The notes under the pieces were generated by a model. It was not told the origin of the DNA. It ran no database searches and saw nothing but the letters and a program-made list of their open reading frames with translations. DNA of 64,000 nucleotides from Nitrospira sp. ND1 (lineage in GTDB: Bacteria; Nitrospirota; Nitrospiria; Nitrospirales; Nitrospiraceae), in NCBI RefSeq assembly GCF_900170025.1, contig NZ_FWEX01000005.1, positions 605,073-669,072 of the forward strand, written 5' to 3'. Within the stretch, counting starts at the first letter, position 1, and every line of letters begins with the position of its first letter. A program made the translations under genes and the position numbers. Below, one piece after another: positions 52,842-63,988 of the stretch.

Positions 52842-53705
52842 CTAACCAAAGTCGTCGTAGCGTGTTTGGCCCTCACTCTCATCATCCTCTTCATCCGTGA
52901 GATCGAGAACCTGGCGTTCGTCTTTCCACCACAGCAAGGTAAGGACAAGGTTGGGGGTTATTCGCACAGAATCTTCGCAGATCGTGTAGTTGTTGGATCT
53001 TGGATGATTAATCCATTGGGCGGCATTCACGACAGTTGGCCCGGGAGGCATGATCGCCGCGCTTCTATGCAATCCAAAGGCAACCGTGTCTCTGCCCAGG
53101 CTTTCATGCGGCCAGACAGTCCTCGGCACAATGTCGCTTCGCGTAAACCATGTTCGTCCTCGGACGTTGGAGCAGAGGACCATTGATGGGAAAGATCCGT
53201 ATTCCACCAATCGAATAGCGGTGGCCGTCGTACTGGTTTGAAAGGTGTTGGCCAGCTCCTCCACCGTATGGAACGAGATCGGGTGATTCTGGGTTCGAGG
53301 CTGGAACATATGGACGGGCATAAGGAGGTCCGCCGCATAACGATTCGCCCGCTTTTCAGGATTCTCGGAAAACCATTCAGAAGTGAACTGACTGTCTGTG
53401 CAAGCAAGCGCCGCCTTCCCACGATCGTGCATCCAGTGCCCTAACTCGTGCCCACCAGAAAAGCGTCGGCGGGCGGGAGCCGAGGCGCTATCTATGGTGA
53501 TAATGGCGCGATCACCATATCCAAGAATGCAGGCGGCACAACCTTTCAGCGGGGCATAGACAATCGTCGCCCCGCAATGTTGCGCGATGGCTTCCACATC
53601 AATATCGCGGGGATCCTCGATGCCTAATTCATGCAAGAGGTTTGCTGGTGAGATGGGTCTTGTTGGGGACACCGAGCAGTTAGCCTTGCTGGGAGGGGAG
53701 ATCAT
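52842..53705 (-). CDS. ImmA/IrrE-family zinc metallopeptidase, copy 1
   Basis: 287 residues, with ggag seven bases before the ATG. The zinc site is GGHELGHWMHD, with the downstream glutamate-bearing helix region RANRYAADLLMP. A second C-terminal domain follows (TVWPHESLGRDTVAFGLHRS). Family knowledge: ImmA/IrrE peptidases cleave DNA-binding repressors after a stress signal, as in ICEBs1, Deinococcus IrrE-DdrO and CBASS CapP-CapH. The start overlaps the upstream small gene by 26 bases, so the partner is probably encoded there. Confidence 0.92.
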   Translation of the reverse strand: MISPPSKANCSVSPTRPISPANLLHELGIEDPRDIDVEAIAQHCGATIVYAPLKGCAACILGYGDRAIITIDSASAPARRRFSGGHELGHWMHDRGKAALACTDSQFTSEWFSENPEKRANRYAADLLMPVHMFQPRTQNHPISFHTVEELANTFQTSTTATAIRLVEYGSFPSMVLCSNVRGRTWFTRSDIVPRTVWPHESLGRDTVAFGLHRSAAIMPPGPTVVNAAQWINHPRSNNYTICEDSVRITPNLVLTLLWWKDERQVLDLTDEEDDESEGQTRYDDFG

Positions 53706-54123
53706 CTAGAACTCCAAGGTCTTGCAGTTGCTTCAACAGGAGGTCCACATCCTCATCGGTCAATGCGTGGAATTCACGGCCGGCAGCCGTGAGGACACCT
53801 CGCAGGTCTGGTTTCATCGCAAAGACTGTGGTGAGCAACTCGCGCCTCTTCCCGCTGGACTGCGGTAATGGAGATGCCCTTTTCCCCATGGAAAGAATCC
53901 GCGCATCGTACTCAGCCCTGGCGCGACGGAGTTTCCCTTGTTTATGGCGCGTGATCGCACTGGCGATAACCGTTTTGGCTTGGTTCGCCAGAGACTCGAC
54001 ATCAAGCCCCTCCTCACGGCATTCCCTCCACAGGTCCTCTGGAGAGGTTTCCGCTACAGACTCAGCGAGCGCATTCAGGATGGTTCGCCGTTCTCGTTCA
54101 TTATCCTGTGGCATATCAGTCAT
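53680..54123 (-). CDS. Small coupling protein of the sigma-ImmA module, copy 1
   Basis: 147 residues, acidic N-terminal helix (LAESVAETSPEDLWRECREE), basic middle (ITRHKQGKLRRARAEYD) and a C-terminal segment (LTDEDVDLLLKQLQDLGVLD). The same plan, with matching ends, is seen in the gene at 62904. It overlaps both neighbours. By position it is the candidate regulator or peptidase substrate, like the repressors cleaved by ImmA/IrrE. No named family. Confidence 0.8.
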   Translation of the reverse strand: MTDMPQDNERERRTILNALAESVAETSPEDLWRECREEGLDVESLANQAKTVIASAITRHKQGKLRRARAEYDARILSMGKRASPLPQSSGKRRELLTTVFAMKPDLRGVLTAAGREFHALTDEDVDLLLKQLQDLGVLDDLPSQQG

Positions 54124-54760
54124 GAGCCTTTACTTTTGCGAGCGTTCTGACCTTCCGCCTCAAGCGCTTCATTCCCGTTTCATAGTCAGACTTGGTGATG
54201 CCGAGAACCATCTGTATCTCTGGACCTGTCATTTCGGCTCGCATGCCACTGAGAATTTCCGTTACGAGGGAGTCGTCACGAAATGTATCGGTCAGATGCC
54301 GGATCTCGCTATTCCCCATTATGACACGCTCCGGAGAGGGTGTGGTGGATGCGTGCTGCTGAAGTTCGTTCACCTCTCCGCCTTCGGGATGAAGGCGGAT
54401 GAGTTCGCTCTCTGAATACGTCCCAGCTTGCCGTGTAGAGACCTCTTCAGCCCAATGTGACGAAACACTTCGCATCACGCCAATCAAATGCCCCACCAAA
54501 TCCACCGCACGCGTGTTCCAATTGCGCCGGCCCTCGAGGGTGAGCGTGACGGCTTCATTCAGCAGATCCTGCGCATCACGTCCCTCGGCGGATCGCCCGA
54601 TTATCGCGATGCGGCTTGTCGCATATTGTTGCAACTTCAAAAGTTGGGCTTTGTTCTGATACAGGGATTCCAAAGCCGCAATGAGGTCGGTTTCGGTAGA
54701 AACCGCCTCTCTGATGGCCTTAGAGGACGTCGATTGTGAATCCGTCTCCTCCTTGCCCAC
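54116..54760 (-). CDS. Sigma-70-like regulator, copy 1
   Basis: 214 residues from GTG 54760. A longer ORF to 54901 exists, but its first 47 codons run antisense to the ribosome site of the divergent gene and look non-coding. Region 2-like sequence (DLLNEAVTLTLEGRRNWNTR, HLIGVMRSVSSHWAEE) and region 4-like sequence (DSLVTEILSGMRAEMTGPEI, LGITKSDYETGMKRLRRKVR) are visible. It would direct RNA polymerase to specific promoters, perhaps the divergent Ubl operon, or act as a DNA-binding regulator. It overlaps the small gene by 8 bases. Confidence 0.78.
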   Translation of the reverse strand: MGKEETDSQSTSSKAIREAVSTETDLIAALESLYQNKAQLLKLQQYATSRIAIIGRSAEGRDAQDLLNEAVTLTLEGRRNWNTRAVDLVGHLIGVMRSVSSHWAEEVSTRQAGTYSESELIRLHPEGGEVNELQQHASTTPSPERVIMGNSEIRHLTDTFRDDSLVTEILSGMRAEMTGPEIQMVLGITKSDYETGMKRLRRKVRTLAKVKAHD

Positions 54761-54902
54761 ACTCCCTCTACCTTTGTATGCCCGAATGACCTGCAAGGCC
54801 GGACAGGCGAAAAAAACTTTCTGTTTGTCCGAATTTGCCTCGCTGGCGGCATTGTACTGTAGGGAGAGTGGTGAAACAAATCTCAGAACGGGGAGGTCCA
54901 TC
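54761..54902. promoter_or_regulatory. Divergent control region between sigma module and Ubl operon
   Basis: A 142-base gap lies between the two divergent starts and is A/T-rich around aaaaaaactttctgtttg. The plus gene has a strong gggagg site at its right edge. No confident -35/-10 pair was assigned. It is the only place for promoters of both units. Confidence 0.5.
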
Positions 54903-55094
54903 GTGGGAAGAAAGACATATCACGTAACTCCAGCGAGCAACGGCGATTGGAAGGTGACAGGCGTCGGAAACAGCCGAGCTTCAGGTGTGCACGCTAATAA
55001 GGCGGACGCCGTGGCGCAGGCAAAAGAATTGGCGAAATCTCAGGATCTCGGCCAAGTGGTGATTCATAGTCGGGACGGAAAGATTCAAACGTAA
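54903..55094 (+). CDS. DUF2188 protein
   Basis: 63 residues from GTG 54903, with ggggagg six bases upstream. The whole length matches the DUF2188 pattern (KTYHVTPASNGDWKVTG, ADAVAQAKELAKSQDLGQVV, IHSRDGKIQT). Function of the family is unknown. It is the first gene of the plus-strand unit leading to the Ubl gene 160 bases on, so it may be cotranscribed. Confidence 0.82.
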   Translation: MGRKTYHVTPASNGDWKVTGVGNSRASGVHANKADAVAQAKELAKSQDLGQVVIHSRDGKIQT

Positions 55095-55254
55095 CACACC
55101 TACGGCTCCGACCCGCATCCACCCAAAGGATAGCCGGTCGGCAGCTTGGATGTCTTAGTCGTACAGGGATTTGACTTGGCGTAGGAACGTACACGTTGAC
55201 AATGCGTCGCTCGTGCCTTTGAGTTATGTGAAAGACAATCCATCGGAGGAGTGC

Positions 55255-55524
55255 ATGGACGTACAAGAAAGCAAGCAAGAGCACCAAAAAGTCTTCACCA
55301 TAATTGTGAATGGTCGGCAAAAGATGGTGGAGACGAAAGAATTATCATTTAGCCAAATCGTTGGATTGGCATTTGACAATCCGCCCACGGGCGAGAATAC
55401 GGTGTTTACCGTTACATACAGGAAAGGTGAAGGGCATAAGCCCGAGGGCACGTTAGTCGAGGGCGACATGATCAAAATCAAGGACGGGATGATTTTTAAT
55501 GTCACAGCAACTGATAAATCATAG
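55255..55524 (+). CDS. Ubiquitin-like protein (multiubiquitin-domain family)
   Basis: 89 residues from ATG 55255 with ggagga four bases upstream. A single beta-grasp domain with the multi-ubiquitin pattern: VFTIIVNGRQKMVETKELSF, IVGLAFDNPPTGENTVFTVT, GTLVEGDMIKIKDGMIFNV. The C terminus is ATDKS, with no Gly-Gly. It overlaps the E1-like gene by 26 bases, so both are made together. Presumably the modifier adenylated by the next gene's product. Confidence 0.85.
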   Translation: MDVQESKQEHQKVFTIIVNGRQKMVETKELSFSQIVGLAFDNPPTGENTVFTVTYRKGEGHKPEGTLVEGDMIKIKDGMIFNVTATDKS

Positions 55525-56680
55525 CCCCGATCTTAAAAAGTTGCGCGATGAGGGTTATGACGTCGCGGTTCAGTCTAACTATCTCCTCATCAGGCGTGTT
55601 CCTTACGTCAATTCCAACCGAGAGGTCAAACGCGGGATCCTTATTTCGGAATTGAGTTTGGCGGGCGATGTGACGACTGCTCCCAGTACTCATGTCGTCT
55701 ATTTTACGGGCGATCACCCTTGCAACAAGGACGGATCTCTCTTGATCAAGATCAAGCATCAAAGCGAACAACAGCGCCTTGGTCCTGATCTCGTCGCCAA
55801 TCATTCGTTCTCCAGCAAGCCGAGTAGAGGGTATAAGGACTACTACGAGAAGATGTCGACGTACGCGACCATCATTTCAAGCCCTGCCGAGTCCATCGAT
55901 CCACGTGCAACTGCCACGGTGTTTCCGATCATTGAAGCCGAGGCAGACCATTCGGTCTTCAACTATATGGATACAGCCTCGAGCCGGGCTGGGATTCAGA
56001 TCGTGAGCAGGAAGCTGGAACTCGCGAAGGTTGGGATCATAGGTTTGGGTGGGACCGGGTCATATGTGTTAGACCTCGTGGCAAAAACTCCCATTAAAGA
56101 GATTCATCTGTTCGACGGCGATCAATTTCTGCAGCACAACGCCTTTCGGTCGCCAGGAGCGCCATCGCTTGATGAACTGCGAGCGGCTCCAAAGAAGGTC
56201 GTGTACTTCAAGTCTCGATATGCGCACCTGCACAGACACATCGTTGCCAACGATTGCTTTATCGACGCCTCAAATATCGAGCAACTGCGGGGAATGAGCT
56301 TTGTGTTCCTTTGTCTCGACAGCGGCAGCGCAAAAAAGGTGATCGTCGAGAAGCTGGAAGACTGGGCCGTACCCTTTATCGACGTGGGTATGGGAGTCGA
56401 GTTAGTCGATGACGCATTGGGGGGAATCCTCAGAATCACAACCAGCATCCCCAAGACACCTCAGTCTGCGAAATCCAGACAGCGAATCTCCTTCTCTGAG
56501 AGGGGCGAGAACAACGACTATTCGCGAAACATCCAGATTGCTGATCTGAATGCCCTGAATGCTGCGCTTGCGGTCGTCAAATGGAAGAAATTGTGTGGCT
56601 TTTATCGGGATTTGGAAAAGGAGCATACCAGTGTGTACACCATCGATGGCAATATTCTGAATAATGAAGATCAGAGATGA
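55499..56680 (+). CDS. E1-like adenylyltransferase (DUF6791-ThiF)
   Basis: 393 residues. The N-terminal ~150 residues match the DUF6791 pattern (LKKLRDEGYDVAVQSNYLLI, TAPSTHVVYFTGDHPCNKDG, KPSRGYKDYYEKMSTYATII). Then comes a ThiF/E1 Rossmann domain with the nucleotide loop VGIIGLGGTGSYVLDLVAK and acidic strand IHLFDGDQF; a Cys in VFLCLDSGSAKK could serve thioester chemistry. The family activates the C terminus of ubiquitin-like proteins. ATGA overlap with the next gene shows tight coupling. Confidence 0.88.
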   Translation: MSQQLINHSPDLKKLRDEGYDVAVQSNYLLIRRVPYVNSNREVKRGILISELSLAGDVTTAPSTHVVYFTGDHPCNKDGSLLIKIKHQSEQQRLGPDLVANHSFSSKPSRGYKDYYEKMSTYATIISSPAESIDPRATATVFPIIEAEADHSVFNYMDTASSRAGIQIVSRKLELAKVGIIGLGGTGSYVLDLVAKTPIKEIHLFDGDQFLQHNAFRSPGAPSLDELRAAPKKVVYFKSRYAHLHRHIVANDCFIDASNIEQLRGMSFVFLCLDSGSAKKVIVEKLEDWAVPFIDVGMGVELVDDALGGILRITTSIPKTPQSAKSRQRISFSERGENNDYSRNIQIADLNALNAALAVVKWKKLCGFYRDLEKEHTSVYTIDGNILNNEDQR

Positions 56681-57129
56681 AGCGCACAGCTCACCTCATA
56701 CACGAGTTTGTCGACTTCATTCCCTCTCAACTGAAAGACGGAACGGTCTACGTATCCTTGCCTTTCGCCACCGCGGTTCACAAATGTTGCTGTGGCTGCG
56801 GCAATGAGGTGGTGACTCCACTGTCTCCGACAGACTGGACTCTCATCTTTGATGGCGCCTCCATTTCACTTGACCCATCGATCGGGAACTGGAGTTTTTC
56901 CTGTAGATCTCATTATTGGATCACTCGGAATACGGTCATGTGGGCCCGAGACTGGTCCAGCGCAGAAGTGGAGGCTGTTAGGGGCTATGACAAATTCGTG
57001 AAACAACGTCATTTGGATCAGATCCGAGCGCTGCCTCCTATTGATAAGAGGCGCATACATGGGGAAGGCCTACGAGATGAGAAACCACTGGAACGCTTGT
57101 TGCGCAAGGCTAAAAGTTGGTGGGCATAG
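56677..57129 (+). CDS. DUF6527 metal-binding protein of Ubl systems
   Basis: 150 residues with the DUF6527 core: HKCCCGCGNEVVTPLSPTDW, ISLDPSIGNWSFSCRSHYWI. Four or more Cys and a His make a likely zinc site of treble-clef type. Family members travel with multi-ubiquitin and ThiF genes; a ligase-like or target-recognition role has been guessed from context. The C terminus is basic. It overlaps the E1-like stop by 4 bases. Confidence 0.85.
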   Translation: MKRTAHLIHEFVDFIPSQLKDGTVYVSLPFATAVHKCCCGCGNEVVTPLSPTDWTLIFDGASISLDPSIGNWSFSCRSHYWITRNTVMWARDWSSAEVEAVRGYDKFVKQRHLDQIRALPPIDKRRIHGEGLRDEKPLERLLRKAKSWWA

Positions 57130-57974: not shown

Positions 57975-58181
57975 ATGAACGCTGAACGCGAAAGCTGGGC
58001 CGATCCGGACGAGAAACGCAGAGCCGACGCACAACTCGAAACGAAATTGTTGCAGGGGCTGAACAGCCCCGAGAGTGAACTGACACCGGCTGTCTGCCGT
58101 GACATTCGCAAAGAGGCGTTGGCTACGCGGCGCGTGCGAGTGCCCCGGCGTGACTTAAGAAGATCGGCCAGCGGCAAGTAA
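57975..58181 (+). CDS. Mosaic antitoxin-tail protein 2 (ParD-like tail)
   Basis: 68 residues from ATG 57975; GTG 57942 is an alternative. It begins MNAERESWA, almost as in the preceding gene, and then differs: KLLQGLNSPESELTPAVCRD and IRKEALATRR resemble the C-terminal toxin-binding part of ParD antitoxins. The ribbon-helix-helix half is absent. The 3' end overlaps the convergent phosphoesterase remnant. Confidence 0.6.
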   Translation: MNAERESWADPDEKRRADAQLETKLLQGLNSPESELTPAVCRDIRKEALATRRVRVPRRDLRRSASGK

Positions 58182-59355
58182 TTCCGTGTTCCGGGTGGTT
58201 GAGCCAGGCCGCTTGCGTCGGCACTTCGAAATCGAAGTTCGACTGATACGCGTATTCGTCGTACCCCTTCAAACTCCCATTCACGATCACTCCCCGGGCC
58301 TTCAGATACGTGTGCCAGTGACCCATGACCATGTAATCATATGGGCACCTCACAGCCATCTGCTGCTTCCGCTTGCGCGCATCACCGATAAACAGTGGCG
58401 ACATCACGCCTGAGATTCCAGACCCGCCGCGGAACTAATCCCCGTGAGTCAGGAGGTAGGACGTGTTGTGCACGGTAAACACCTGATCGGCCCCGTCGGC
58501 GATCCCGAAGCTGATGCTTTTTCCCCCTGCGAAGTGCCGCTTCAACAGCTGATACGCCAACCAGTCGTAGTTGTCGTAGACCCGGTTCTTCGCTCGCGGT
58601 TTTTTGTCGATGCGCCCATGATTCCCAACGACGGCCGGGATATACACCCTCCCGAACGCATTGTGCAGCAATTCAAGCCCGGCGATGAGATGGTCAACGA
58701 GGTGGAGCAGGCTCGCGTGGATCGGCGCCTCGTTCGGCTGAGCAGCTCTTCGTGGATGTCCCCGCTCAACATATCCTCACCCAGGGCGAGCACCGCGTAG
58801 TCGTAGGACGGTTTCGAGAGGTGATTCTTGGTGAGGTCTACGAACGTCCGGAAAAAGCGTCCTGCGCGTTGGACGGCGATCTCGCAATTGTGGGCGTTGA
58901 CATGCTCTACCTGCTCCGGAGTGACAACTCCGTCCCAGTGCCAATCTGAGGCGAGCAGGATGGGGACGCCCGTGGTGTGACCCTTCGTCTGTTTCTTGCG
59001 CCACGATGGCGGCTTAGCAGGCCCATCGACGCATTCGTGGATAATCTCAAGGAGCGCGTGCTGCGATACTTGCTCGCCTGTCATCGTCGTGAGCTGCCCG
59101 CGGAGGTCTTTAACTTGTTGTTCGATCTGCGCGATCTTTCGCAAATGCGCCGGCATGGCGGGCTCCACGAGCTTCACGCGCGCGATGGCTCCGGTCTTGC
59201 CATGCCGAACCTGCACACCGCCGCGTCCAGCTGGACTTCAGCGTGTTGACCGGGATCTTGAGACGGCGCGCCGCTTCCGCTTTGACCCCGCCCGCAGATT
59301 TAAATGCTTTGATTGCTTGTGCTATGTCTTGCTTGGTGAGTCTAGAATGAGCCAT
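58123..59355 (-). pseudogene. HTH-metallophosphoesterase gene, frameshifted and amber-interrupted
   Basis: Read on the minus strand: an HTH start (LTKQDIAQAIKAFKSAGGVK, AEAARRLKIPVNTLKS), a frameshift near 59235, a coiled region (AQIEQQVKDLRGQLTTMTGE), a phosphoesterase core (ILLASDWHWDGVVTPEQV, LALGEDMLSGDIHEEL), a second frameshift near 58740, VYIPAVVGNHGRIDKKPRAK, then TAG at 58435 where Gln is expected (LLTHGD, FRGGSGISG), and MVMGHWHTYLKARG. All calcineurin-type metal motifs (DxH, GD, GNH, GHxH) can be found. Phage-like in character. Confidence 0.78.
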
Positions 59356-61772: not shown

Positions 61773-62531
61773 TTATCTTGCACAAGACGAGGGCCAAACA
61801 ACCAAACTAAGGGCAAGGTGGGCAGTGATTCTCACCGTGTCTTCGACGACATCCCTGATGGAGGCATTGTTTCCACCAAACCAGACCGTGGGGGATACTT
61901 TTCTGGGCCCAATCGGCTCCTCATCACGCTTGAGAATAGCAGCCGCTCCGGATTCAACCGGAAGGGTGCGTCGCGGCCAACATTGCGCCGCTTTGGCACT
62001 GGGACTGAGCTCAAACCACGCTCGACCGTGCGCACTTGCACAAATCAGCGCGGCGGGACGATCTGTCAGCTGGACCAAACGCATGGCGGTCGCGGTGATA
62101 CTGGTTTCAAATTGTTCTGCCAACCCTCGAACCGTTTCTAAGGTGAGAGGCTTATCTTTCAAAAGCGATTGAAACAAATACTGTGGCAGGAGCAATTCAG
62201 CTGCATAGCGATTGGCCACGCTCTCTCTATCACGTCCTTCCCACTTACACATCAGCTGTTCATTATTGCAAACGAGGGCGACTTTGCCGCGATGCTTCAT
62301 CCAATGGCCCAATTCATGAGCGGCAGAGAATCTTTTTCTCGACGTGGTCGCCCGTTGGTCCACTGTGATAATTGCGCGATTGCCGTGGCCGATAATCCGT
62401 CCTTCACACCCAACAAGCCGTTCGTACATCACTGTGGCGCCGCAGTATTGCGCAATGGCTTCGATATCAATGTCACGAGGAGCGGTGACGTGTAATGCTT
62501 TCAGCAACGCTTGTGGATCGTCAGCAATCAT
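61773..62531 (-). CDS. ImmA/IrrE-family zinc metallopeptidase, copy 2
   Basis: 252 residues. The zinc motif AAHELGHWMKH and the second motif region VANRYAAELLLPQ match copy 1 (52842), as does the N terminus (PRDIDIEAIAQYCGATVMY). The C-terminal domain is also shared (VEDTVRITAHLALSLVVW against CEDSVRITPNLVLTLLWW). The two are clear paralogues that have diverged considerably. Its start is 373 bases from the small gene, unlike the overlap in copy 1. Confidence 0.9.
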   Translation of the reverse strand: MIADDPQALLKALHVTAPRDIDIEAIAQYCGATVMYERLVGCEGRIIGHGNRAIITVDQRATTSRKRFSAAHELGHWMKHRGKVALVCNNEQLMCKWEGRDRESVANRYAAELLLPQYLFQSLLKDKPLTLETVRGLAEQFETSITATAMRLVQLTDRPAALICASAHGRAWFELSPSAKAAQCWPRRTLPVESGAAAILKRDEEPIGPRKVSPTVWFGGNNASIRDVVEDTVRITAHLALSLVVWPSSCAR

Positions 62532-62903
62532 ATTTAGCCGTACAGGACAGAAGAGCCTTATGAATACACACCCCTCGCATCACGGAGCAGGAATTCTCCC
62601 GACGATCCAAGTTGGAGAACATGGCAGATTGCATGAATACAGGGGGCAAGTCTCATAGTACTGTACACCCGTCGCGACGGCAAGTTAGCCCCCGATTTTA
62701 GGCATATGGCTCCATACAGAGGGCGAGGACCATGGCAACGTCGACGAAATCGAGCCCATGGAATTTCGACTTTTCTTTCACAAGCGGAAAGTCTGACGTC
62801 GTTCGGGCTTACCACGGAGCGCTATGAATGCGGTGAACACCTGTTTGCCGACGGCTCTCACTCGTGATGTCGTAAACCAGAAGGTTTGCGCGGATTGCCG
62901 CCC
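62532..62903. other. Gap inside the second module, no gene recognised
   Basis: Frames in either strand here look non-coding. The corresponding junction in copy 1 is an overlap, so this is inserted or degenerated DNA. No repeat ends were identified. Confidence 0.4.
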
Positions 62904-63341
62904 CTAGACTTTCTTGAATTTGAGAAGGCCCAAGACATGAAGTTGCCGCAAAAGGCTATCGACATCTGACGGCGCCATATCGCTCAATTTTCGGTGCTGA
63001 CCAGTCAGCACCGCAGGCTTCAAGTACTGATGATGTGCGAGGCAAGCCTTGAGCAATTCCAACTTGTCTTTCATAGTCGTTGGCAAAGAAAGTCGAACAC
63101 GCTTTAGCAAGGTGGCCTCTTTCTGATAGGTCTGACGGGATCGGGCCAATGCTTGCTCATTGTGCCTTCCAAGTGCTTCTGCGACTACTCTTCTCGTCTC
63201 CTCTTCAAGCTCTTGCGGTTCCAGGCCACTCTCCCGGATTTCTTCATCCAATTCTTCTTCGGACAAACTCATAATGGCTTCGGTCTGCAAATCTAACACA
63301 CGCTCATATTGCAAATGGATGCTCTTCGATTTCGTTCTCAT
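62904..63341 (-). CDS. Small coupling protein of the sigma-ImmA module, copy 2
   Basis: 145 residues; ATG overlaps the sigma-like stop (ATGA). An acidic N-terminal helix (SEEELDEEIRESGLEPQELE), basic centre (NEQALARSRQTYQKEATLLK) and C-terminal SDVDSLLRQLHVLGLLKF parallel the protein at 53680. Family unknown. Conservation of position and ends supports a role in the regulator-peptidase pair. Confidence 0.78.
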   Translation of the reverse strand: MRTKSKSIHLQYERVLDLQTEAIMSLSEEELDEEIRESGLEPQELEEETRRVVAEALGRHNEQALARSRQTYQKEATLLKRVRLSLPTTMKDKLELLKACLAHHQYLKPAVLTGQHRKLSDMAPSDVDSLLRQLHVLGLLKFKKV

Positions 63342-63988
63342 AAAGCTCCTTCTTGGATGTGCTTCTTGATCTTTTTAACTGCGCGCACCACTTGCATATT
63401 GTAAGCCATGTATTGACGGTTGGTCAGCTTGAGCTCTCGGCAAATATCTCGGCCGCTTAACCCGTCCAACTTCAACTGAAACACCTGATGGCCCATAGAT
63501 TCATGCCCCAGAACGGCCGACATCTGGCATTTAATGTTGGTCACAATGTGGGCCTGGCGTTTCGCTTCTAATTCTGCTTCCGGATTCGGAAGAGGGGAGG
63601 GGAAATCATCAGCAGTCTTCCCTCTTACTTCATCATCGTCGCCATCTTCATCTTTTGAATTGAGCGCTGAGAGAAGAACCGGCTCTCGATATCGTTGACT
63701 CTTGTGATGCTCCGCATGGTTGCTCACCTCTGACCTGATAGCCCAACAGAGATGCTTATACATCGGATAACTTTTATTCCACGGTCTTCGTCCAGTTAGC
63801 GTAGCCAGCACGGCTTCCTGAACATAATCTGGCGCCTCTCTTCCCCCGACACCGGCAGTAAGCGATCTCACTAACCAGTTCAAACGCCGGTATTCTTTTG
63901 CGGTCAGCGCTTCAATGGCGCGGCGAGTTTCATCATCACTAGCATTCACAATCTTTGAAGCCCCACTTCCAAAGAACTGCTGGCCCAA
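63338..63988 (-). CDS. Sigma-70-like regulator, copy 2 (start uncertain)
   Basis: Up to 216 residues; the frame begins at a TTG near the window edge, and an internal GTG (63949) is a better start. Region 2-like sequence (APDYVQEAVLATLTGRRPWN, LCWAIRSEVSNHAEHH) and region 4-like sequence (VFQLKLDGLSGRDICRELKL, TNRQYMAYNMQVVRAVKKIK) align with copy 1. An acidic insert (KDEDGDDDEVRG) lies between. It may control a unit beyond the right edge. Confidence 0.75.
   Translation of the reverse strand: MGQQFFGSGASKIVNASDDETRRAIEALTAKEYRRLNWLVRSLTAGVGGREAPDYVQEAVLATLTGRRPWNKSYPMYKHLCWAIRSEVSNHAEHHKSQRYREPVLLSALNSKDEDGDDDEVRGKTADDFPSPLPNPEAELEAKRQAHIVTNIKCQMSAVLGHESMGHQVFQLKLDGLSGRDICRELKLTNRQYMAYNMQVVRAVKKIKKHIQEGAL

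What the first reader, a model, noticed from the sequence alone, without database searches (positions are those of the whole stretch)
52842..57129. Ubiquitin-like conjugation operon divergent from a sigma-factor/ImmA-IrrE module
Seen: plus-strand DUF2188, Ubl, DUF6791-ThiF and DUF6527 genes with overlapping ends, and directly divergent a minus-strand unit of sigma-like regulator, small protein and HELGH metallopeptidase, also with overlapping ends. Known: CBASS operons with E1/E2-like proteins can be controlled by CapH/CapP, a repressor plus an ImmA-like peptidase; IrrE-DdrO works the same way in Deinococcus. Inference: this is a stress- or phage-triggered bacterial ubiquitination-like system in which the regulator is sigma-like, not a classical repressor. 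I know of no described system with this combination.
Basis: partly seen in the sequence, partly recalled or inferred. Interest (0 to 1): 0.86.

Follow-up and report, generated by a model that had tools for sequence, protein, structure and literature searches.

The report
Protease-gated sigma switch for defence operons
A bacterial ubiquitin-like operon sits head to head with a three-gene regulator (a sigma factor, a small protein that appears to be its protease-sensitive brake, and a CapP-type protease); the same three genes recur in at least nine phyla beside different defence operons and Tn7-like transposon genes, which points to an undescribed portable way of switching such systems on.

Summary
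The plus-strand operon is DUF2188, Multi_ubiq, DUF6791-ThiF, DUF6527; the divergent unit is ECF-type sigma, 147-aa small protein, M78/CapP-type peptidase. Of the 38 closest homologues of the peptidase in 84,980 genomes, 36 have sigma-small-peptidase in the same order, against 0 of the 30 most distant, and they span at least nine phyla. Partners vary: Ubl/E1 operons, type II/III CBASS, E2-E1-JAB operons, Tn7-like tnsA/tnsB. The three regulator proteins co-evolve; the E1 protein does not follow them, so this is a portable regulator, not a Ubl component. New here: (1) an outward-facing promoter pair, TGTCC[G/A]-N16-17-GCAT/GCCTA-type, in 23/49 intergenic regions against 14/578 controls, with -10 variants matched within a locus; (2) the small protein carries the C-terminal tail of CapH-type repressors (the F/L-R protease-site region) without the HTH; (3) near-identical Ubl operons elsewhere use CapH+CapP or WYL regulators instead. 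Best reading: the peptidase cleaves the small protein (anti-sigma), freeing a sigma that activates its own operon and the partner operon. Cleavage, sigma binding and the inducing signal are inferred. New variant of CapH/CapP immune control; mechanistically closest to Calp and Csx29-Csx30-sigma.

The parts
52842..53705 (-). ImmA/IrrE/CapP-type (Peptidase_M78) metallopeptidase, HELGH motif, 287 aa
   Evidence: Pfam M78 1.1e-11; PADLOC capP 3e-55; solved CapP 7t5t 1.9e-18 with the family profile
53680..54123 (-). Small all-helical protein, 147 aa: proposed anti-sigma and protease substrate; C-terminal tail shared with CapH-type repressors, no HTH
   Evidence: No own family hit; conserved R116 in tail; AF2 pLDDT 88 with the tail motif in a low-confidence loop; CapH-tail similarity of the family
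54116..54760 (-). ECF-type sigma factor, 214 aa from GTG 54760 (ORF open back to 54901)
   Evidence: Family profile hits SigH/SigE chimera 2.1e-7 and SigH 8.9e-7 in the PDB; AF2 pLDDT 86 with sigma2+sigma4; Foldseek top hits are mostly sigma factors
54776..54805 (-). Predicted sigma-dependent promoter of the regulator operon: TGTCCG (54805-54800), 17 nt, GGCATA (54782-54777)
54826..54853 (+). Predicted sigma-dependent promoter of the effector operon: TGTCCG (54826-54831), 16 nt, GGCATT (54848-54853)
54903..55094 (+). DUF2188 small protein, GTG start
   Evidence: Pfam 8.7e-21; PADLOC candidate PDC-S16 1.5e-18
55255..55524 (+). Single-domain ubiquitin-like protein (Multi_ubiq)
   Evidence: Pfam 1.9e-20
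55499..56680 (+). DUF6791-ThiF E1-like adenylyltransferase
   Evidence: Pfam 4.5e-61 / 1.7e-9; NCBIfam PRK06153 1.5e-179
56677..57129 (+). DUF6527 protein
   Evidence: Pfam 9.2e-25
61773..63988 (-). Second copy of the regulator triad in the window: peptidase 61773-62531, small 62904-63341, sigma 63338-63988, divergent from Tn7-like tnsABC-tniQ beyond the window end

Best explanation
The minus-strand unit is a self-contained, proteolysis-gated sigma switch. The ECF sigma factor recognises the promoter TGTCCG-N16/17-GGCAT and is held inactive by the small protein. The small protein ends in the same F/L-R-containing tail as CapH-type repressors, which the CapP-type peptidase cuts once it is activated (by analogy, by single-stranded DNA from DNA damage or phage attack). 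Cleavage frees the sigma, which fires two back-to-back promoters: its own operon (positive feedback) and the divergent effector operon, here the ubiquitin-like conjugation genes. The module is portable and controls CBASS, E2-E1-JAB operons and Tn7-like transposases in other loci. Shown by computation: ECF sigma homology, triad conservation, matched outward promoter pairs, the CapH-like tail, and swapping with CapH/CapP. Inferred: that the small protein binds the sigma, that the peptidase cuts it, and what the signal is.
For: Triad in fixed order in 36 of the 38 best peptidase hits and 0 of the last 30. Sigma identity. Outward GTCC[G/A] pair in 23/49 loci vs 14/578 control windows, Fisher 3.5e-19; -10 similarity within a locus 6.87/8 vs 5.35 between loci (0 of 20,000 permutations) and 4.57 elsewhere in the same region. 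Regulator proteins co-evolve, Mantel r 0.69-0.78, p 2e-4. A CapH-tail HMM puts 6 small proteins in its top 10 of 3,673 ORF tails (0.1 expected, p 1.7e-10); the curated capH model hits small proteins of three loci, in L017 (55% identical to the window's) only over tail positions 73-100 of 103. In DdrO the cleavage-site region is ELRG and its Arg is required with ssDNA (PMC10904395). The same Ubl operon elsewhere is controlled by capH (8.5e-33) + capP (2.2e-66).
Against: No experiment or complex model shows that the small protein binds the sigma. The window's own small protein does not itself reach the capH model, and the tail HMM scores many family members weakly. The Tn7-associated subfamily in Nitrospira lacks a recognisable TGTCC pair, and 26 of 49 regions have no strict pair. 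The window's own pair is a weak case in the covariation test (5/8). A few loci (Bradyrhizobium L012/L015, Mesorhizobium L011) keep sigma and small gene without the peptidase. Foldseek found no fold match for the small protein, so it is not recognisably a known anti-sigma.
Confidence: 0.72

Rival explanations
1. Repression model: the small protein is a CapH-like DNA-binding repressor in disguise, the sigma-like protein is its partner, and the peptidase derepresses as in classical CapH/CapP.
For: The tail is CapH-like. The Planctomycetes version (L013) has weak XRE HTH hits in its small protein (E 0.04-0.05).
Against: The small proteins tested carry no HTH by Pfam, PADLOC or Foldseek except L013. 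The conserved DNA element is bipartite and directional like a promoter, with locus-matched -10 variants, and the sigma has both DNA-binding domains.
Confidence: 0.13
2. The triad controls only itself and is an independent toxin-antitoxin or selfish module that happens to lie in defence islands; the divergent operon has its own promoter.
For: The E1 tree does not follow the regulator trees, and partners vary widely.
Against: Nearly always divergent from, and adjacent to, the first gene of an effector operon. The effector-facing promoter shares the locus-specific -10 element of the sigma-facing one. The same position is filled by CapH/CapP or WYL regulators in sister operons.
Confidence: 0.07
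3. The peptidase cuts the sigma itself, so the switch turns the operon off under stress.
For: IrrE-type peptidases cut the transcription factor in known systems (PMC10904395, PMC10233336).
Against: The protease-site-like tail is in the small protein, not in the sigma, and in the known relatives (CapP, IrrE, ImmA) cleavage turns the target genes on.
Confidence: 0.05

Closest known systems
CapH/CapP (Lau et al. 2022, cited in PMC13373217; the original paper was not held)
   Same: CapP-type peptidase; cleavable C-terminal tail on its partner; divergent position beside CBASS and Bub operons; portable between immune systems.
   Different: The HTH repressor is replaced by two proteins, an ECF sigma and an HTH-less small protein; the logic becomes activation by a released sigma instead of loss of repression.
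Csx29-Csx30-CASP-sigma, type III-E CRISPR (PMC10028731)
   Same: Three parts: protease, cleavable anti-sigma, ECF sigma controlling defence genes.
   Different: The protease is a CHAT protease activated by target RNA; Csx30 (565 aa) is much larger than the small protein (147 aa) and no similarity was seen here; confined to CRISPR loci.
CalpL-CalpT-CalpS, CRISPR-associated Lon protease (named in PMC12751052; details from own knowledge)
   Same: Protease cuts an anti-sigma to free a sigma during defence.
   Different: Lon protease with SAVED sensor, activated by cA4; different proteins.
CapK/CapS (PMC13373217)
   Same: Two-gene DNA-damage regulator swapped between Bub, CBASS and other operons; also found beside YegP-like genes.
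   Different: Kinase plus STAS-wHTH repressor; no sigma and no protease.
IrrE/PprI-DdrO and ImmA-ImmR (PMC10904395, PMC10233336)
   Same: Same peptidase superfamily; F/L-R cleavage-site region in the partner.
   Different: The partner is an XRE repressor.
Bub operons (Gong 2025, Ye 2026, cited in PMC13373217; not held)
   Same: Ubl + E1-like genes, regulated by divergent immune regulators.
   Different: No E2 was recognisable in the window's operon; membership could not be tested against the papers.

Membership tests
CapH/CapP regulators | CapP-type M78 peptidase | tested here: met
   PADLOC capP 3e-55; solved CapP 7t5t 1.9e-18
CapH/CapP regulators | CapH: HTH repressor partner | tested here: not met
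   Small protein: no capH, HTH or fold match; only the tail is CapH-like in family members
CapH/CapP regulators | ssDNA-activated cleavage of the partner | not testable with these tools
   Needs purified proteins
ECF sigma factors | sigma2 and sigma4 domains, no sigma3 | tested here: met
   hmmsearch SigH/SigE 2.1e-7, SigH 8.9e-7 across both domains; AF2 and Foldseek
ECF sigma factors | Autoregulated bipartite promoter | tested here: met
   Outward promoter pair with matched -10 in 23/49 loci; computational only
Anti-sigma factors | Binds and inhibits the sigma | not testable with these tools
   No complex prediction available; co-evolution with the sigma r 0.69
Csx30/CalpT-type protease-cleaved anti-sigmas | Homology to those proteins | not tested
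   No direct comparison with Csx30 or CalpT was run; profile searches of the PDB with the small-protein family listed neither
Bub operon | Ubl and E1-like genes | tested here: met
Bub operon | E2-like protein | tested here: inconclusive
   No E2 Pfam hit; DUF6791 and DUF6527 do not align with the E2 or JAB profiles built here

The most novel reading that the evidence does not exclude
A mobile, protease-gated ECF sigma/anti-sigma switch, probably derived once from a CapH/CapP module by replacing the repressor's HTH, spread over at least nine phyla and driving both immune operons and Tn7-like transposase genes, most often from paired TGTCCG promoters, so that one damage signal could switch on defence and transposition together.
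Probability: 0.6. Interest if true: 0.88.

Novelty: new variant of a known kind. Interest (0 to 1): 0.8.

Why it matters
Known ImmA/CapP/IrrE peptidases act by destroying a repressor. Here the same peptidase family appears to act through a sigma factor, which means amplification by positive feedback and a promoter that can be recognised in sequence, so regulons of immune islands can be predicted. Because PADLOC calls this peptidase capP, such loci may be counted as CapH/CapP and the sigma missed. The link to Tn7-like transposase genes suggests that some transposons listen to the same signal as their defence cargo.

Tried and rejected
Literature searches for a sigma factor with ImmA/CapP/IrrE at defence loci found none in the held library; the key Corbett-laboratory papers (CapH/CapP, Bub) are not held, so an unread description cannot be excluded. 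DUF6791 or DUF6527 as a hidden E2 or JAB: no profile similarity. Strict promoter search over the whole genome gives 27 hits vs 10 in the reversed-pattern control, so no regulon could be claimed. Left end of the Tn7-like element, to ask whether the Ubl operon is its cargo: not found. A shared promoter in the Tn7-linked Nitrospira copies: not found. A first test of bipartite sharing inside each region with an 8+6 template was weak (mean z 1.1); aligning on GTCC[G/A] made it clear, so the motif was chosen after looking and then tested against control windows. The Mann-Whitney form of the tail test was rejected because sigma proteins also scored above background. The comparison of E1 with the regulator has only 9 loci.
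Full report
What is there. The window lies in a Nitrospira-like genome (4.45 Mb, 6 contigs; the closest named Tn7-linked triad is from Nitrospira defluvii). All seven genes are real. The plus operon is DUF2188, Multi_ubiq, DUF6791-ThiF and DUF6527. The minus unit is sigma-like, small protein, M78 peptidase. The sigma gene most plausibly starts at GTG 54760, which leaves a 142-nt shared promoter region.

Sigma identity. Alone the protein has no Pfam hit, but a profile of 49 relatives hits solved ECF sigma factors SigH/SigE (2.1e-7) and SigH (8.9e-7) across both sigma2 and sigma4. The AlphaFold model (pLDDT 86) has the two four-helix domains and its Foldseek list is dominated by sigma factors, although with weak E-values (best 0.012), probably because the two domains can move relative to each other. 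Some relatives carry weak Sigma70_r2 or ECF Pfam hits.

A conserved triad. A scan of 84,980 species genomes with the peptidase alignment kept 80 loci. Of the 38 best, 36 have sigma, small protein and peptidase in this order; of the two exceptions one contig begins inside the module (L057), the other (L027) had no recognisable sigma. None of the last 30 has a sigma; their upstream gene is commonly an XRE repressor. In a tree of 70 peptidases, sigma-type and XRE-type labels need two changes, one of them due to a single long-branched row, against 18 in shuffled labels. The carriers span Nitrospirota, Acidobacteriota, Pseudomonadota, Planctomycetota, Verrucomicrobiota, Chloroflexota, Bacteroidota, Myxococcota and Thermodesulfobacteriota.

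Portable, not Ubl-specific. The divergent or adjacent partners are Ubl/E1/DUF6527 operons (12 loci with the window), CBASS operons with CD-NTases or a TRIP13 ATPase (about 11), E2-E1-JAB operons often with patatin (5), Tn7-like tnsA/tnsB sets (8) and genes led by DUF2188/DUF3892 or of unknown kind. Sigma, small protein and peptidase distances correlate (Mantel 0.69-0.78, p 2e-4, 41 loci), but E1 distances do not follow them (0.05, 0.01 and 0.23, not significant, 9 loci). Conversely, similar DUF2188-Ubl-ThiF-DUF6527 operons in other genomes of the same genus and on plasmids stand beside XRE repressor plus ImmA, which PADLOC names capH (9e-31, 8.5e-33) and capP (6e-69, 2e-66), or (without DUF2188) beside a WYL regulator. 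[quoted passage not shown]

Promoters. Intergenic regions of 49 loci were compared. TGTCCG is the most enriched hexamer that is not A/T-rich (27/49 vs 32/289 control pieces, p 3.7e-11). In 23 of 49 loci two GTCC[G/A] boxes face outward, one toward the sigma gene and one toward the effector operon, against 14 of 578 control windows (p 3.5e-19). About 16-17 nt downstream of each lies a -10-like box whose form differs between loci (GGCAT, GCCTA, GCAC, GCTTTATA) but is matched between the two sides of a locus: 6.87 of 8 bases within loci, 5.35 between loci (0 of 20,000 permutations) and 4.57 against other places of the same region. That is what one locus-specific sigma reading both promoters would leave. 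In the window the boxes are TGTCCG 54826-54831 / GGCATT 54848-54853 toward DUF2188, and TGTCCG 54805-54800 / GGCATA 54782-54777 toward the sigma gene; by the 8-mer measure the window's own -10 pair is only weakly alike (5/8), though both hold GGCAT.

The small protein. It is all-helical (AF2 pLDDT 88) with no fold match. Its best conserved residue is an arginine (R116) in a T-x-A-x-R motif near the C-terminus, in the model's least certain inner loop. A profile of the C-terminal tails of XRE repressors that precede other ImmA peptidases (FFR-x-Y...) was run over 3,673 ORF tails of the triad loci: six of the ten best are triad small proteins (p 1.7e-10), and a seventh is the small gene of L068 by position. 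The curated capH model hits small proteins of L064 (2.9e-4), L024 (1.7e-3) and L017 (3.2e-3); in L017, the window's closest relative, only over its tail. In DdrO the protease-site region is E-L-R-G and its Arg is needed for ssDNA-stimulated cleavage (PMC10904395). The economical reading is that the small protein keeps the protease-target tail of CapH and has exchanged its DNA-binding half for a different, probably sigma-binding, half.

Mechanism. Taken together, the peptidase would cut the small protein, releasing the sigma to fire both promoters. Mechanistic parallels with cleavage of an anti-sigma exist in CRISPR systems (Csx29-Csx30-sigma, PMC10028731; Calp, named in PMC12751052), but with other proteases. 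What the signal is remains inference from CapP and PprI, which are activated by ssDNA (PMC13373217, PMC10904395).

Novelty. I found no description of a sigma factor with a CapP/ImmA peptidase in the held library, but the main Bub and CapH/CapP papers are not in it. I file it as a new variant of CapH/CapP-type immune control: the defining HTH repressor was tested and is absent, so it is not a CapH/CapP member.

Noticed in passing
window 61773-63988 and L023 7123-14770: A second sigma-small-peptidase triad lies 5 kb away, divergent from Tn7-like tnsA-tnsB-tnsC-tniQ genes; the same arrangement occurs in four other genomes of the family (L018-L021) and, with tnsA/tnsB-like genes, in Acidobacteriota and Bacteroidota (L030, L070). 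In this genome tnsC is interrupted by IS3-type copies around an assembly gap.
   Followed up: partly
L018 272-3702: The Tn7-like locus of a relative carries an E2-E1-JAB fusion and a patatin beside the triad, that is, probable defence cargo next to the transposase genes.
   Followed up: partly
window 54903-55094; L017, L034, L035, L040, L058, L060, L202, L203, L206, L210: DUF2188 is repeatedly the first gene (or among the first) of the controlled operon, under sigma-type and CapH-type regulators alike; YegP-like genes are reported beside CapK/CapS (PMC13373217). Its role is unknown.
   Followed up: no
L012 5965-6812, L015 5737-6731: Bradyrhizobium plasmids carry sigma and a shortened small gene without the peptidase, divergent from an rRNA adenine methyltransferase-like gene; these short proteins seem to lack the CapH-like tail.
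   Followed up: no
G000 C5:523172, C6:729934, C6:1176932, C6:2368772: TGTCCGAAATTTTGTGTGTGAGGCAT is repeated identically at four places in the genome; perhaps the end of an insertion sequence that mimics the promoter.
   Followed up: no
C5 about 677079-677153, just beyond the window: Three TCGGACA repeats behind tniQ look like the right end of the Tn7-like element; the left end was not found.
   Followed up: partly
window 58123-59216: A phage-type gene resembling one largely intact in L019 1-852 is split over several frames, so it looks broken here.
   Followed up: no
L208 1492-2639: A Spirosoma plasmid Ubl/ThiF/DUF6527 operon is divergent from a distant sigma of this family followed by a 181-aa protein and no peptidase.
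   Followed up: partly
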